A stretch of DNA of 64,000 bases. Source: Hyalangium ruber (GTDB lineage Bacteria; Myxococcota; Myxococcia; Myxococcales; Myxococcaceae). Within the stretch, counting starts at the first letter, position 1. Each line of letters begins with the position of its first letter. The stretch is taken from the NCBI RefSeq assembly GCF_034259325.1, contig NZ_JAXIVS010000012.1:248001-312000 (forward strand). Reading direction: 5' to 3'. Both the position numbers and the translations under genes were made by a program. The notes beneath the pieces were generated by a model that saw only the letters and a list, made by a program, of their open reading frames with translations, was not told where the DNA came from and did no database searches. This document shows positions 833-6,027 of the stretch, in pieces.

Positions 833-2253
833 CCTCCGAGCAACTCCTTCACCTCGCGCTGCCAGCGCGCGCCCAGCTCCGGGTGAACCATGCGCACGTA
901 GGCCGCGTAGCCCCGCAGCCAGCCCGCGAAGTCCTTGCGGCCCCGCGCCTGCGAGGCCACCCCGTGCTTGCGGCAGTTGGCGAGGATGGCCTTGAACCGG
1001 CGGCGCTCCGAGCGAGGGATGGAGACCTGCTGGTTCACCGTCAGGCCCGTCACCCGCTGGCGCAGGCCCCTGCGCATCACCCGCCGCTTCGGCGCGTTCT
1101 CGGTGAAGCCCTCCTGCTGGAGGATGGCGTTCACCCACCAGAGGAAGCGCCCCATCCGCTCTGGCGGCGTCTTGAATGAGAAGGACAGGTCATCCGCGTA
1201 GCGCGTGTAGGAGGCCCCCAGCTTCTTCGCCAGCGCCGTGAGCCGCGCGTCCATCCGGCGGCACACCAAGTTGGCGAGGGCCGGAGAGGTCGGCGCCCCT
1301 TGCGGCAGCGCGCCCGGCCACACCACCGTGCCATCGGGCAGCTTCGGACGGTGCGTGGTGAGCCCGGCGAGCGTGCTGGCCACCTCGTCTCCGTAGCCGT
1401 GCGCCTGGAACAGGCCCTTCACGCGCCGGAAGTGGACCGTGGGGAAGAAGTCCTCCAGGTCCACCCGCACCACCACGGTGGCGCCCGTGTGGGGCTCGGC
1501 GTTGCTCACCGTGGAGCGCCCCTGCACGAAGCCATGCGCCGCCTCGTGCGGGGGCATGTGCGCGAGCACCTTGTCCAGCAGCGCGCGCTGTACCTCCTTG
1601 AGCCGCGCGCGCGGGGCCGAGATGCGGCGCACGCCGCCCGTGCGCTTGGGGACCTCGAACTCCACGTACCCCGAGCCCGCCTCCGTGCCCGGGCGCATCA
1701 GCGCGTCCAGCTCCGACTCCTTCACGCCGACCAGCTCCGCCACATCCTGGCGCGTGCGAAGCGCGGGCAGCTTGCCCGTGGTGGGCGGCGAGCGCTTGGC
1801 ACGCGAGCCCCACCGCGCCTGGGGAATACCGAAGTTCCAGCCCGTCGGGTTCCACCCGCCCAGCGCCATGGGGCGGGGAGTGCGCGGCGGGCGGAAGCGG
1901 CGATCCGGCGGGGAGACATCCGCGAGCCCCAGCTTGTGCACCGCCGCCCGCGCGGCCCGCGACACCCGCTCGTTCGGGTCCTTCACCAGGCGCCGAAGCT
2001 GCCCCGCCGCGTTCGCGCGCGCGAAGAGCAGCGGCACCTGCTTCACCCCTCGGAGCCGCTCGCGCGGATCCACGCTGCGCAGCATGCGCCCCACGGGGGC
2101 CAGCCACTGGCGGCTCACGTAGAAGCGGGCTACCTCGTACTCGGCCAGCCCCTGGTGGCGCTCGAGCAGCTCGGTGATGCGCTCGAAGTTGGCCTCGGGG
2201 TCCGCCATCAGGGGCTTCAATTCGAGGAGGAGGCCAACGAGGTTCATTCCCAT
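829..2253 (-). CDS. ret: Retron reverse transcriptase (myxobacterial Mx162-like)
   Basis: A 474-residue reverse transcriptase that makes msDNA from the adjacent ncRNA. It carries the catalytic YADD at residues 352-355 and both retron-specific signatures: NAxxH (NAEPH, 251-255) and VTG (401-403). An N-terminal extension of about 170 residues precedes the RT core, as I recall for myxobacterial Mx162/Sa163-type RTs; its 'RERLRGVKQ...DPNERVSRAARAAV' part looks HEAT-like. I chose the ATG at 2253 because GGGAG lies 5 nt upstream; an in-frame ATG at 2247 is the alternative. The longer upstream frame would read through the ncRNA and is unlikely. The stop overlaps the next gene by 4 nt. Family assignment is firm; the biological role (probably phage defence) is inferred from retrons in general. 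Confidence 0.93.
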   Translation of the reverse strand: MGMNLVGLLLELKPLMADPEANFERITELLERHQGLAEYEVARFYVSRQWLAPVGRMLRSVDPRERLRGVKQVPLLFARANAAGQLRRLVKDPNERVSRAARAAVHKLGLADVSPPDRRFRPPRTPRPMALGGWNPTGWNFGIPQARWGSRAKRSPPTTGKLPALRTRQDVAELVGVKESELDALMRPGTEAGSGYVEFEVPKRTGGVRRISAPRARLKEVQRALLDKVLAHMPPHEAAHGFVQGRSTVSNAEPHTGATVVVRVDLEDFFPTVHFRRVKGLFQAHGYGDEVASTLAGLTTHRPKLPDGTVVWPGALPQGAPTSPALANLVCRRMDARLTALAKKLGASYTRYADDLSFSFKTPPERMGRFLWWVNAILQQEGFTENAPKRRVMRRGLRQRVTGLTVNQQVSIPRSERRRFKAILANCRKHGVASQARGRKDFAGWLRGYAAYVRMVHPELGARWQREVKELLGG

Positions 2254-2273: not shown

Positions 2274-2432
2274 GCGCTCCTGGGGCCACCGCCACCTGCA
2301 CGGCAGAAGCAGACGAGTTCGGGGAAGCCCGCAAGGCGGAACTCGTCCTGCGTCGTTCTTCAATGGGTATCGTTGGCAGCCGCGACGTGACATCGCGGAC
2401 GAAAGGCTGGCTGCACGCGACCCCAGGAGCAC
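2274..2432 (-). ncRNA. Retron msr-msd ncRNA
   Basis: Located immediately 5' of the RT gene, in the usual retron order. The ends are complementary 12-nt arms: on the plus strand GCGCTCCTGGGG at 2274-2285 and CCCCAGGAGCAC at 2421-2432 pair over 10 perfect base pairs, one G-U and a closing G-C. These fit the a2 and a1 repeats that delimit retron ncRNAs. Inside, an msr-like part has a 6-bp stem (2376-2381 with 2409-2414) enclosing a CGCGAT/GTCGCG hairpin. The msd-like part is a long hairpin (see 2305-2359). From a2 the predicted msDNA would be roughly 70-90 nt, nearer Mx65 than Mx162 in size. The branching G cannot be fixed by eye. Only ~42 nt separate a1 from the upstream stop codon, so the promoter probably lies inside the upstream gene or transcription reads through it. 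Confidence 0.82.
2305..2359 (-). other. msd hairpin encoding the msDNA stem
   Basis: A long imperfect inverted repeat: 2309-2320 pairs with 2339-2351 over 12 bp with one bulged base. After a 4-nt asymmetric bulge (2352-2355) it extends by AGAA/TTCT (2305-2308 with 2356-2359). The apical 18 nt can fold a further GCC/GGC mini-stem with a 5-nt loop. Long bulged stems like this are typical of the DNA part of msDNA. The position between the msr-like stems and a2 supports the call. Confidence 0.75.
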
Positions 2433-2473
2433 TGTCAACTCCAGCACATTCCCGCCACGGTGGGAAGACTCGG

Positions 2474-5344
2474 CTAGGTCGGGGGCGGCTCGTCCTCCTC
2501 CAGGAGTGCCAGCAGCGTGTCCCGGGTGCCACCCGGGGCTTGGCGGATGAGCGTGTTGAACCGCTGGTTGCGCGCGCGGACCCGCGCTCCGTGGGCTCGC
2601 ATCGCCTCCAGCGCCTCCGGCACCATCCACGGCCGGGCGAGCACCTCCAGGTTTTGCATGAGCTCGCGGTGGCTGCGGGGCGCGCTGAGGCAGGCGCTGA
2701 CTCCCGGCTGCGAGAGGGAGTAGCGGTAGCAGTCCACCGCGCTGGGGAGCGCCGAGTCCGCGGGCATCCCCGGCGTAGGCTGGAGCAGCCGGCCGTAGCA
2801 GGTGGCGGTGAAGGTCAGCACGCCCGTGCCTCGCGCGAGCGCCTCGGGGAAGAGGGCCGCTTCGGCGCCCGGGTGCGCCGCGCTGTGGCGGGTCATCACC
2901 ACGGGCCAGGGGCGCTCTCGCAGCGCCTCCCGCGCCACGTCGCGCAGGTGGGTGGAGAAGCCAAAGGCGCGCAGCTTTCCTTCGGCGCGCAGCCGCTCGA
3001 GCGCCTCGAAGTCCTCCGGGTTCAACCGGTGGGGTGAGCGCACCCAGTAGAGCAGGAAGACATCCAGCCAGTCGGTGCGCAGTTGGCGCAGCGCCGACTC
3101 CACGTCCCGCCGGATCGCCTCGGGCCCCGAGTGGTACGTGCCGCCCACGAGCACCATCCCCGGCCTGCGGCTGCGGCTCGAGCGCAGGAAGCGCGTGAGT
3201 GGGGCGTAGTCGGGCTCCCAGAAGAACGCGTTCACGCCGGCCTCGTGGGCCTCGGTGAGCGAGGCGGGTGAGAGGCCATTGGCGCCCGAGAGCACGAGCG
3301 GCGAGAGGCTCAGCCCCGTGTTTCCCAGCGGGCGCCAGGAGGGCCGCATCGGAGCCTGGGGCGGTGCTCGCTTCGAGGCCCCTTGCTCCTTTCGGGTCCG
3401 CACCGGACGGCGACGCTCGATGTCGGGGGCGGTGGCGATGACGTCATCCGGGAAGACCAGCGTCATCGCCTCCAGGTGTGCCACCACGCGCTCCGGCTCG
3501 GTGGAGCCTCGTAGCGCGGCGCACAGGTGCTCGAAGGCCTCGGCGTCCGCGCCGCGCAGCAGCCAGGTGTAGGCGGAGGCCCGGACATCGGCGTCCCCTA
3601 CCCTCGCGTCCCCGCGCAGCAGCTCGGTCAGGAGCGCGTCGAGCGTGTCACACGCCTCCAGGACCGTGGCGGTGGCGGCTCGGACCATGGGAGCCGAGTC
3701 CATCGAAAGGCGCAGCAACGCCTCCAGCTCTTCTCGCGTCCCCTCCGCGCGGAGCAGCTCCGCCGCGCGGGCTCGCATCCAAGGATCCGGGGAACGGGAG
3801 ACAGCGAGCGCGACACCTCGGGTCTCTTCCTCGGAGAGCCTCGCGCTCTGGGAGACCAGCAGCTCGAGGGCCGCACGGCGCACGGACGGATCCGGATCGC
3901 TCTCGCACGCGTTGCGCGCGGAGGGCACATCCAGCACCGCAGTGCGGATCCAGGGATCCTCGTGCGCGAGCGCCTCAAGTCGCTCCTCAGGCGACAGGCT
4001 GCCTCGCACCGCCCGCTCCGACAAGGCCACCGCGCGGACCGACACCTCTTCATCCGCCGAGGCCCGTACGAGCAAGGCTTCGTCCCCGACAACCCCCGCG
4101 GCCTCGACCACCGCCCGGCGCTCGCGGACGGAGCGGGCGCGAGGCGCGAAGGCCACCAGGGCACGGGCAAACGCCATGATGGCGGAGGGGGCCGGCGGGC
4201 GACGCTCCCAGGCGGCGAGCACCTCTTCTCGCACCGAAGCGTCCGGATCCCCGAGGGCGGCAAGCACCTGCTCCCGGCTCGCGGGCTCATGAACGAGGCC
4301 CGAGAGCGCGGCACGGCGCACGGCGGGCTCTTCGTGCCGGGCCAGCGCACGCACGCGCTCCAGCAACTCGCCCTGATCCCGGCGCACGGCGACCCACGAC
4401 GCCCAGGCCACCGCGCCGGGTCTCGGAGGCTCTCCCAGGATGCGAGCCGCGAGGGGCAGTTCCTCCAGGTCCATCCGACCGAGCAGGGAGCTGACCTCCG
4501 CCGCGGCATGGGGGACGCGCGGCTCATCCAGCCAGCGCATCGCGAGCCGGATGGCCTCCGGGTCCCTCCGCTCGAGCAGGCGGCGACGCGCCAGACTCCG
4601 GAGCGCCTCGTGCGGGTTGCCCAGCCACTCCACCAGCTTGACTGGAGGAATCTCCGAGGCCGGCATCCGCTCCAGCCTCGCGGTCACCACGGCGGGATCC
4701 TCATCCTCCAGCCCATCCTCTATAGGAGGTTGCGTGGGCTCCGGCAGGGCGACGCTCCCGGGCGATGGAGCGTCCGTCCCCCACACGCCTTCCAGATACG
4801 CCGCAGCCGCCCGGACCGCCCCCGGCGCCTGCCCCGCACCCGCCGCGCGCACCCGCTGCCGCACTTCGGCGTCTCCTTCCCCCAGCCACACCAGCGCCTG
4901 CACCGCCGCGTTCCGCACCCGCCAGAACGGGTCCTCCAGCGTTCGCAGGAGCAGCTCCAGCGCCCCACTGCCCGCCACCGAGGCCGCGGCCCGGACCGCG
5001 GCACGCCGCACCCACCACACCGGCTCTTCCCGGCTGGCCTGGTCCGTATGGGGCACCAGCTCCCGTGCGCCCAATCGGGCCAGCGCGCGCCAGGCGCGAT
5101 CCCGGACCGAGGGCATCGGATCCCCCAAGGCCTCGATCAGGGCAGAGGTGAAGCGTCGGTCCCTAGCCTCTCCCAACCGACGCGCGGCGGAGGCGCGGAC
5201 CTCGGCATCCTCGTCCGCGAGCAACGCCTGACGCAGCGCATAGCGGCCCGGGAGCGCGGACATGTCGACGGCGTCCACGGCGTCACGCCGCACCTCGACG
5301 GCTTCATCGAACAGCCGCACGGTGGCCGGGTCCCAGGGAGTCAT
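2474..5344 (-). CDS. HEAT-repeat / aldo-keto-reductase fusion protein
   Basis: About 956 residues. Residues ~20-640 are an array of HEAT repeats, about 30 residues each (recurring patterns like 'DPMPSVRDRAWRALARLG', 'HEEPAVRRAALSGLV'). From residue ~668 an aldo/keto-reductase-like barrel begins ('WRPLGNTGLSLSPLVLSG') and runs to ~940. The barrel looks degenerate: the usual catalytic Lys after the third strand is in 'MVLVGGTYH', and the His of the fourth strand is replaced in 'DVFLLYWVRSP', so redox activity is doubtful. The start is the ATG at 5344; a TTG at 5353 with GGGAG 8 nt upstream is equally plausible. It is divergent from the next gene by only ~38 bp, and its stop lies ~42 nt before the retron ncRNA, so both may share a transcript. 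The role is probably a protein-interaction scaffold. Confidence 0.8.
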   Translation of the reverse strand: MTPWDPATVRLFDEAVEVRRDAVDAVDMSALPGRYALRQALLADEDAEVRASAARRLGEARDRRFTSALIEALGDPMPSVRDRAWRALARLGARELVPHTDQASREEPVWWVRRAAVRAAASVAGSGALELLLRTLEDPFWRVRNAAVQALVWLGEGDAEVRQRVRAAGAGQAPGAVRAAAAYLEGVWGTDAPSPGSVALPEPTQPPIEDGLEDEDPAVVTARLERMPASEIPPVKLVEWLGNPHEALRSLARRRLLERRDPEAIRLAMRWLDEPRVPHAAAEVSSLLGRMDLEELPLAARILGEPPRPGAVAWASWVAVRRDQGELLERVRALARHEEPAVRRAALSGLVHEPASREQVLAALGDPDASVREEVLAAWERRPPAPSAIMAFARALVAFAPRARSVRERRAVVEAAGVVGDEALLVRASADEEVSVRAVALSERAVRGSLSPEERLEALAHEDPWIRTAVLDVPSARNACESDPDPSVRRAALELLVSQSARLSEEETRGVALAVSRSPDPWMRARAAELLRAEGTREELEALLRLSMDSAPMVRAATATVLEACDTLDALLTELLRGDARVGDADVRASAYTWLLRGADAEAFEHLCAALRGSTEPERVVAHLEAMTLVFPDDVIATAPDIERRRPVRTRKEQGASKRAPPQAPMRPSWRPLGNTGLSLSPLVLSGANGLSPASLTEAHEAGVNAFFWEPDYAPLTRFLRSSRSRRPGMVLVGGTYHSGPEAIRRDVESALRQLRTDWLDVFLLYWVRSPHRLNPEDFEALERLRAEGKLRAFGFSTHLRDVAREALRERPWPVVMTRHSAAHPGAEAALFPEALARGTGVLTFTATCYGRLLQPTPGMPADSALPSAVDCYRYSLSQPGVSACLSAPRSHRELMQNLEVLARPWMVPEALEAMRAHGARVRARNQRFNTLIRQAPGGTRDTLLALLEEDEPPPT

Positions 5345-5382
5345 GCGCCGCAAACTCTACGCTCCCTGATAGAATCGCGGAC

Positions 5383-6027
5383 ATGCCCGACATGCTGGCC
5401 ATCATCAGCAAGGCCGTGTTCGAGAAGGAGGCGCCCGGCAGCAAGCCAGGAGACGTCCTGACGCTCGACCGCTACCGCAGCGCCAGCCGCCACCTCGAGC
5501 CGCTGAAGTCCGGAGGGCGGCTCTTCCTCGTCACCGTGCGTCCCCCAGCGGAGGCGCTCTGGCTGGTGGCCGTGCTCGAAGGGCTGACGTTCAAGGACGA
5601 GGAGTGGCGCTCCCGCCCCAACCGCGTCCCCATCACCGACATCACCGCCCTCATTCCCCGCCTCCGCTTCGAGTCAGGCAAGGGCATCACCGCGGCGAAG
5701 GGAGCCCTGGGCATGTCGCTCCAGACGCCGCGCGCGCTGGCGGCCGAGGACATCGCCCTGCTCCTCCCCTCGGGTGGAGAGGCGTTCGTCCCGCCCGGCC
5801 CCACCAACCTCACGGCCCACGATCCCGAGTCGCCGCTGCCGTGCCTGTGCAAGGGCTGCCTGCCCCAGGCGCCCGAGCGCGCCGAAGCCCGAGGCATGGG
5901 CTTCACCCGCTCGAAGGTCGAGGCGAACGGCCGAGCGCTCCACTACTGGATGCCGGACGAGCTGCTGCCGGACGCCCACGCCGTCTCCCAGTCCGTGCTG
6001 GGCGCGCTGATGATCCGCACCTCCTGA
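5383..6027 (+). CDS. Conserved hypothetical protein, C-terminal CxCxxC
   Basis: A soluble 214-residue protein I do not recognise. The first ~150 residues alternate strand and helix with no known motif; a Gly/Pro-rich hinge near 'GGEAFVPPGPTNL' follows. A 'CLCKGCL' cluster near residue 154 could bind metal. There is no signal peptide or membrane segment. The start ATG lies only 38 bp from the divergent HEAT/aldo-keto-reductase gene, so the two share a compact promoter region. No function is proposed. Confidence 0.7.
   Translation: MPDMLAIISKAVFEKEAPGSKPGDVLTLDRYRSASRHLEPLKSGGRLFLVTVRPPAEALWLVAVLEGLTFKDEEWRSRPNRVPITDITALIPRLRFESGKGITAAKGALGMSLQTPRALAAEDIALLLPSGGEAFVPPGPTNLTAHDPESPLPCLCKGCLPQAPERAEARGMGFTRSKVEANGRALHYWMPDELLPDAHAVSQSVLGALMIRTS

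What the first reader, a model, noticed from the sequence alone, without database searches (positions are those of the whole stretch)
2274..5344. HEAT/aldo-keto-reductase fusion possibly part of the retron transcript
The fusion gene ends only ~42 nt before the retron a1 repeat, leaving little room for a separate promoter; a TTGACA in that gap (2433-2438) would start transcription inside the msr. So the ncRNA is probably transcribed from within, or together with, the fusion gene. The reductase barrel has lost the usual catalytic Lys and His, so the protein may be a scaffold for the retron complex.
Basis: inference. Interest (0 to 1): 0.55.

Follow-up and report, generated by a model that had tools for sequence, protein, structure and literature searches.

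The report
HEAT-reductase partner gene of a retron
A large protein made of HEAT repeats joined to an unusual aldo-keto-reductase barrel accompanies one particular bacterial retron in every genome where we found it, so it is probably a working part of that retron, but the retron's RNA seems to have its own start signal rather than being made from this gene's message.

Summary
In detail: window 2474-5344(-) encodes 956 aa, two HEAT arrays plus a C-terminal aldo-keto-reductase (AKR) barrel, ending 43 nt before a1 of a retron ncRNA. The TTGACA is where stated. The barrel lacks the catalytic Lys (Gly735) and His (Tyr766).

The link to the retron is strong: among 195 Myxococcota genomes the fusion occurs in 30 and the orthologous RT in the same 30. 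Four relatives keep the flanking genes but lack the whole block. But "no room for a promoter" is not supported: 28 of 28 readable loci keep TGTGNTNNNNT just before a1, and in five Archangium-type genomes, where 3-13 kb separate fusion gene and ncRNA, this block stays with the ncRNA. That it is a promoter is inferred; read-through is not excluded. Loss of Lys/His is not retron-specific: 15 of 15 standalone AKR relatives lack them. The barrel is the best-conserved part of the protein, so not a decayed shell.

The RT is nearest the type XIII model, but no SWIM gene was found in the locus. This is an unclassified retron module, a new variant of a known kind. What the protein does remains inferred.

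The parts
2474..5344 (-). HEAT-AKR fusion gene, 956 aa: HEAT array 1 (res. 1-190), variable linker (191-212), HEAT array 2 (213-640), linker, divergent aldo-keto-reductase barrel (669-925), tail
   Evidence: Pfam; AlphaFold, 11 sequences: mean pLDDT 68.1, HEAT arrays mostly 75-94, most of the AKR region below 50; HEAT array 1 matches alphaRep/HEAT chains, Z up to 20.2; per-domain conservation
2438..2467 (-). promoter-like block: CTTCC (2467-2463), 14 nt, TGTGCTGGAGT (2448-2438; read as extended -10 TG-C-TGGAGT), then 7 nt to a1; inferred promoter of ncRNA and RT
   Evidence: TGTGNTNNNNT in 28 of 28 loci read, CTTCC/CTTTC at fixed spacing in 24 of 28; kept with the ncRNA in 5 genomes with 2.9-13 kb inserts. 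Not found by the sigma-70 scan
2276..2430 (-). retron ncRNA (msr-msd) with a1/a2 ends, 155 nt
   Evidence: contains CAGC, the priming sequence reported for Mx162 and Sa163 (passage of PMC6868368)
829..2253 (-). retron reverse transcriptase, 474 aa, YADD and VTG present (motif names recalled), about 160-aa N-terminal extension
   Evidence: Pfam RVT_1 3.6e-21; PADLOC RT_XIII 385 bits, RT_other 329 bits
1..832 (-). TIGR02996 + leucine-rich-repeat gene, start overlaps the RT stop by 4 nt (ATGA); 319 aa, continues outside the window (L007:11873-12832)
   Evidence: LRR matches below Pfam's cut-off; beside the RT in 25 of 30 genomes
5383..6027 (+). divergent gene, 214 aa, no Pfam, NCBIfam or PADLOC match, C-x-C-x-x-C motif, start 38 nt from the HEAT-AKR start
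   Evidence: found beside HEAT-AKR in the same 30 genomes
5345..5382 (.). bidirectional start region with two opposed -10-like hexamers, TAGA[GC]T towards HEAT-AKR and TA[GC]A[ACG]T towards the divergent gene
   Evidence: window and 11 named loci (for L110 the HEAT start was assumed, not measured)

Best explanation
HEAT-AKR is the partner protein of a distinct myxobacterial retron module: divergent 214-aa gene, HEAT-AKR, ncRNA, RT, usually a TIGR02996-LRR gene. Shown: the parts occur together, diverge in step and are present or absent as a block; the barrel is strongly conserved without the standard AKR catalytic Lys and His; a conserved element precedes a1 independently of HEAT-AKR. Inferred: (1) HEAT-AKR starts from its own promoter in the 38-nt divergent region, and ncRNA plus RT start from the CTTCC...TG-N-T....T promoter at the 5' end of a1, with read-through from HEAT-AKR possible as a second source; (2) as in known retrons, the RT-msDNA complex binds and restrains the partner until a phage disturbs it; (3) the HEAT solenoid makes that contact and the AKR barrel carries the output or a small-molecule (possibly NAD(P)H) signal. 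Steps 2 and 3 rest on analogy only.
For: HEAT-AKR and the RT ortholog in the same 30 of 195 genomes (same 30 of 96 in the family). Presence is mixed within four genera: g3 5 of 6, g8 3 of 7, g19 18 of 27, g26 1 of 7. Of 29 loci with both genes on one contig, 23 have a 197-243 nt gap to the first aligned RT codon, 1 has 437 nt, 5 have 2.9-13 kb; in G056 they lie on different contigs. Protein distances correlate, Spearman 0.92, 0 of 2000 permutations as high, 27 of 30 loci. Flanking genes kept but all of HEAT-AKR, RT, divergent gene and LRR gene absent between them in 4 of 4 g8 genomes lacking the system. Promoter block; opposed -10s. AKR mean pairwise identity 77%, HEAT arrays 69% and 62%. A type XIII locus of the same genome also encodes a HEAT-repeat protein upstream of SWIM gene and RT.
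Against: Co-occurrence and correlated distances also follow from shared descent as a block; there is no experiment. G090 has a 49% RT, the ncRNA core and a downstream gene but no HEAT-AKR. The block does not pass the sigma-70 scan and its hexamer is a poor TATAAT; in two Citreicoccus-type genomes the CTTCC half is absent and the HEAT ORF ends about 20 nt from a1. In many Myxococcus-type genomes the CTTCC part is also the end of the HEAT-AKR coding sequence. No terminator-like site before a1, so co-transcription stays possible. In G014/G015 the gene is split after residue 195 by about 3 kb, yet the retron persists. The AKR region of the model is of low confidence.
Confidence: 0.68

Rival explanations
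1. One reading: HEAT-AKR mRNA and ncRNA are one transcript, the ncRNA being cut from the 3' end of the fusion message; the protein is a catalytically dead scaffold for the retron complex.
For: Same strand, 43-nt gap, no terminator-like site between them; gap of 197-243 nt to the RT in 23 of 29 loci; in G092 the ORF ends just before the first of two ncRNA copies.
Against: Five genomes with 2.9-13 kb between the two keep the CTT(T)CC...TGTGGT[GC]AGCT block directly before a1. Lys/His loss is shared by 15 of 15 standalone relatives. AKR is the best-conserved domain.
Confidence: 0.17
2. HEAT-AKR and its divergent neighbour are an independent two-gene unit that merely sits beside the retron and has travelled with it by linkage.
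For: Start codons 36-38 nt apart in the window and 10 named loci measured; the two stay together where the RT is 3-13 kb away; G090 has an RT without HEAT-AKR.
Against: None of the 30 genomes with HEAT-AKR, of 195 searched, lacks the RT; both are kept even after the 3-13 kb insertions.
Confidence: 0.15
3. It is an ordinary member of retron type XIII.
For: Best PADLOC RT model is RT_XIII, 1.1e-115; HEAT-AKR hits HEAT-ARM_XIII, 9.5e-13.
Against: No SWIM_XIII match among the locus proteins scanned; the HEAT match covers 233 of 1972 model positions; the full HEAT-ARM_XIII protein is at another locus of the same genome next to another RT. A 17-row RT tree puts the window RT apart from the type XIII RTs, with long branches.
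Confidence: 0.07

Closest known systems
Retron type XIII as modelled in PADLOC (RT_XIII, SWIM_XIII, HEAT-ARM_XIII or WGR_XIII); two such loci lie in the same genome, G000 C2 and C4
   Same: RT with N-terminal extension, structured region before the RT, HEAT-containing protein encoded upstream on the same strand (in C4 only a weak HEAT match); window RT best matched by RT_XIII
   Different: No SWIM protein found; HEAT protein 956 aa with an AKR barrel instead of 2183 aa with WD40/beta-propeller and HEAT; RT_XIII matches only the RT core; separate place in a small RT tree; divergent 214-aa gene
RT of G077 and G064 (L157, L160) with no obvious partner gene; possibly the classical Mx65 type (name recalled, not tested)
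   Same: Groups with the window RT clade in a small tree (10 rows, SH-aLRT 99; long branches warned of)
   Different: No HEAT-AKR or TIGR02996-LRR gene noticed by eye in the gene lists of the fetched 15-kb stretches
Standalone AKR subfamily (FW-P, LYW, RYNAAHPGAE motifs)
   Same: 33-43% identity to the AKR domain; Lys and His missing in 15 of 15
   Different: No HEAT arrays in the aligned frames; found also in genomes without this retron

Membership tests
retron (general) | retron-type RT with YADD and VTG motifs | tested here: met
   P0001 contains YADD and VTG; RVT_1 3.6e-21; retron models up to 385 bits
retron (general) | structured ncRNA upstream of RT, framed by inverted repeats a1/a2 | tested here: met
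   no Rfam family at gathering score
retron (general) | NAXXH motif in region X | tested here: inconclusive
   By eye the place may read LAGLTTH; the passage of PMC6868368 says 14 of 16 validated RTs have the motif and two differ at the Asn
retron (general) | msDNA made, with a branched 2'-5' link | not testable with these tools
   needs nucleic acid from cells
retron type XIII | RT of the type XIII clade | tested here: inconclusive
   RT_XIII is the best model but only over the core (model 107-423 of 469), 56 bits above RT_other; apart from type XIII RTs in a 17-row tree
retron type XIII | SWIM-domain gene | tested here: not met
   no match for HEAT-AKR, RT, divergent gene or whole LRR gene; matched at the C2 and C4 loci
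retron type XIII | HEAT-ARM or WGR protein | tested here: not met
   only a partial HEAT match, 44.5 bits; full-length gene is at another locus
canonical aldo-keto reductase | catalytic Lys and His | tested here: not met
   G735 and Y766; 29 of 29 fusion proteins lack both
canonical aldo-keto reductase | AKR fold and NAD(P) binding | tested here: inconclusive
   Pfam match above gathering score; model too weak; binding not testable

The most novel reading that the evidence does not exclude
A retron whose effector or sensor is a NAD(P)-binding, non-canonical AKR barrel on a HEAT solenoid: RT-msDNA holds it off, and phage attack releases a redox- or NAD(P)-linked output, with the divergent Cys-motif protein and the LRR protein as further parts. 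No paper joining retrons with an aldo-keto reductase was found: 0 papers; one search listed 10 of 105, none on bacterial retrons. The library lacks the 2020 classification paper and most subscription journals.
Probability: 0.2. Interest if true: 0.7.

Novelty: new variant of a known kind. Interest (0 to 1): 0.47.

Why it matters
Retrons were first found in myxobacteria. This adds a retron module with a partner of a kind (HEAT plus AKR barrel) for which the searches made here found no retron precedent, gives a list of genomes with and without it, and a testable prediction of where the ncRNA starts.

Tried and rejected
TTGACA as -35 of the ncRNA: it lies between the conserved block and a1, occurs only in the window among the 28 loci listed, and the sigma-70 scan found no site in 2100-2700. 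Rfam: no family at gathering score in the window. 'Barrel inactivated on recruitment to the retron': rejected, standalone relatives share the loss. One ancestral gene split by the retron (the divergent-gene domain and TIGR02996 are fused in other genomes): rejected, the two genes read outward on opposite strands. A second ncRNA copy at the far end of the inserts in the Archangium-type genomes: not found. Structure of the divergent protein: mean pLDDT 59.7, not searched further. The fold comparison of the HEAT-AKR model was filled by HEAT/armadillo chains for residues 1-420 and says nothing on the barrel. Papers: passages of PMC6868368, PMC12548924 and PMC7159879 were seen; others only as search listings; Mestre et al. 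2020 is not held, so type XIII is defined here from PADLOC models only, and its place in that paper is recalled. Rows dropped: one search used 27 of 30 loci (split L083/L084 and the G056 contig break left out); searches used 22 loci (near-duplicates L073, L080, L084, L087, L091, L096, both G092 copies, G056 and G090 left out); one search used 28 of 30 (G056 and G092 left out); one search used 29 of 30 (G056 fragment left out). An earlier count gave 24 tight loci; one search shows 23. Another calls the G090 downstream gene LRR; searches do not bear that out.

Full report
What is there. The minus strand reads, in order of transcription: HEAT-AKR gene (5344-2474, 956 aa), a 43-nt gap, a retron ncRNA (2430-2276), RT (2253-829, 474 aa), and a TIGR02996-LRR gene starting at 832 that overlaps the RT stop by 4 nt and runs out of the window. 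Divergently, a 214-aa gene starts at 5383, 38 nt from the HEAT-AKR start. Pfam gives HEAT repeats and Aldo_ket_red for the fusion and RVT_1 for the RT.

The ncRNA. a1/a2 pair over 15 nt at 87%. An alignment of 22 loci has 92% mean column identity and 53 predicted pairs, 6 with two-sided changes, all six in the msd hairpin; most msr and a1/a2 pairs never vary or change on one side only, and so say little. The distant relative G092 carries two complete ncRNA copies in tandem, each preceded by TGTGGT.

Is the fusion gene part of the retron? In 96 genomes of the family the fusion gene was found in 30 and the RT ortholog (64% identity or more) in the same 30; in two of them the gene is split and in one it runs off a contig. 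In 195 genomes of the phylum the sets stay the same: the 39 genomes hit by the fusion profile are these 30 plus 9 that match the AKR part only, and the 32 RT hits are these 30 plus G090 (49%) and G194 (50%, RT core only). G090 has no HEAT-AKR. The 214-aa gene is at 59% identity or more in the same 30. The LRR gene is beside the RT in 25 of 30. Presence and absence both occur in four genera (g3, g8, g19, g26). In g8 all four genomes lacking the system keep relatives of the flanking genes on both sides (73-82% identity) with no match to HEAT-AKR, RT, the 214-aa gene or the LRR gene between them. Protein distances of RT and HEAT-AKR correlate at 0.92 (27 loci, 0 of 2000 permutations); descent as a block would do the same, so this shows joint inheritance, not function.

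Is it one transcript? Of 29 loci with both genes on one contig, 23 have 197-243 nt between HEAT-AKR stop and first aligned RT codon, one (G092) has 437, and five genomes of genus g3 have 2.9 to 13 kb. In all five the ncRNA keeps the same upstream block: CTTCC or CTTTCC, about 14 nt, then TGTGGT[GC]AGCT, ending 10 nt before a1 (7 nt in nearly all others). Over the 28 loci read, TGTGNTNNNNT is present in 28 and CTTCC/CTTTC in 24; two have CTTCA and two (Citreicoccus type) lack it. In many Myxococcus-type genomes the CTTCC part is also coding sequence of HEAT-AKR, but in the window, in the g8 loci and in g3 it is not. I read this as a promoter with an extended -10 whose start would fall at or near the first base of a1. 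Against: the sigma-70 scan does not score it and the hexamer is weak, so it may be another kind of element. No terminator-like site was seen before a1, so read-through from HEAT-AKR is open. HEAT-AKR itself has TAGA[GC]T 8-9 nt before its start codon in the window and named loci, facing a second -10-like hexamer for the divergent gene.

The barrel. Catalytic Lys and His are replaced by G735 and Y766; over 29 orthologs these are G in 29, and F in 28 or Y in 1. Fifteen standalone relatives fetched for comparison (33-43% identity) also lack both. So the subfamily, not the retron, lost them. The AKR domain is the best conserved part (77% mean pairwise identity; HEAT arrays 69% and 62%); W709, E710, G795, S797, T798, H799, A822, A823, H824, R874, R890 and N898 are invariant in 29. 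A structure model with 11 sequences gave good HEAT arrays and a poor barrel (mean pLDDT 68.1); the helix-strand order of the barrel region agrees with an AKR fold, no more.

What it belongs to. The same genome has two further retron-like loci: C2 with a 2183-aa WD40/HEAT protein, a SWIM protein and RT, and C4 with a WGR protein, a SWIM protein and RT; these match the PADLOC type XIII models over nearly their full length. The window RT scores RT_XIII best (385 bits) but only over its core, and its partners do not match; in a 17-row tree it falls apart from the type XIII RTs, with long branches noted. I therefore call it an unclassified retron near type XIII.

Limits. No transcript, interaction or phenotype data exist here. 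The mechanism (RT-msDNA restraining HEAT-AKR) is by analogy with other retrons. The paper that defines the types could not be read. The searches looked at held genomes only, with capped candidate lists.

Noticed in passing
L152 (G000 C2:880001-898000) and L153 (G000 C4:307001-325000): The window's genome carries two more retron-like loci, both matching PADLOC type XIII models (HEAT-ARM or WGR plus SWIM plus RT).
   Followed up: partly
L092:5948-6104(-) and L092:6147-6303(-): G092 has two complete retron ncRNA copies in tandem between HEAT-AKR and RT, each with its own TGTGGT upstream.
   Followed up: partly
L083 4293-10286 (oriented as) and L084: In two Citreicoccus-type genomes the HEAT-AKR gene is split after residue 195 by about 3 kb; in L083 the insert holds two unrelated genes by the gene list. 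Both halves are open frames.
   Followed up: partly
L162-L168: The N-terminal domain of the divergent 214-aa gene also occurs at the start of 700-940-aa proteins of other genomes; TIGR02996 was found in 3 of 3 such proteins scanned. This suggests that the two outer genes of the retron block are linked in function.
   Followed up: partly
window 1780-2253 (RT N-terminus): The RT N-terminal extension has a weak match to a HEAT-type protein (NblB, E 0.0027, residues 54-113), perhaps a HEAT-like contact region.
   Followed up: no
L072 16382-17416: The roughly 13-kb stretch between HEAT-AKR and RT in G004 contains a separate, ordinary-looking aldo-keto-reductase gene (by eye).
   Followed up: no
L098: G090 has a 49% RT with ncRNA core, a downstream gene overlapping the RT stop by 4 nt and a short stretch like the divergent gene, but no HEAT-AKR: either the ancestral state or a loss.
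   Followed up: partly
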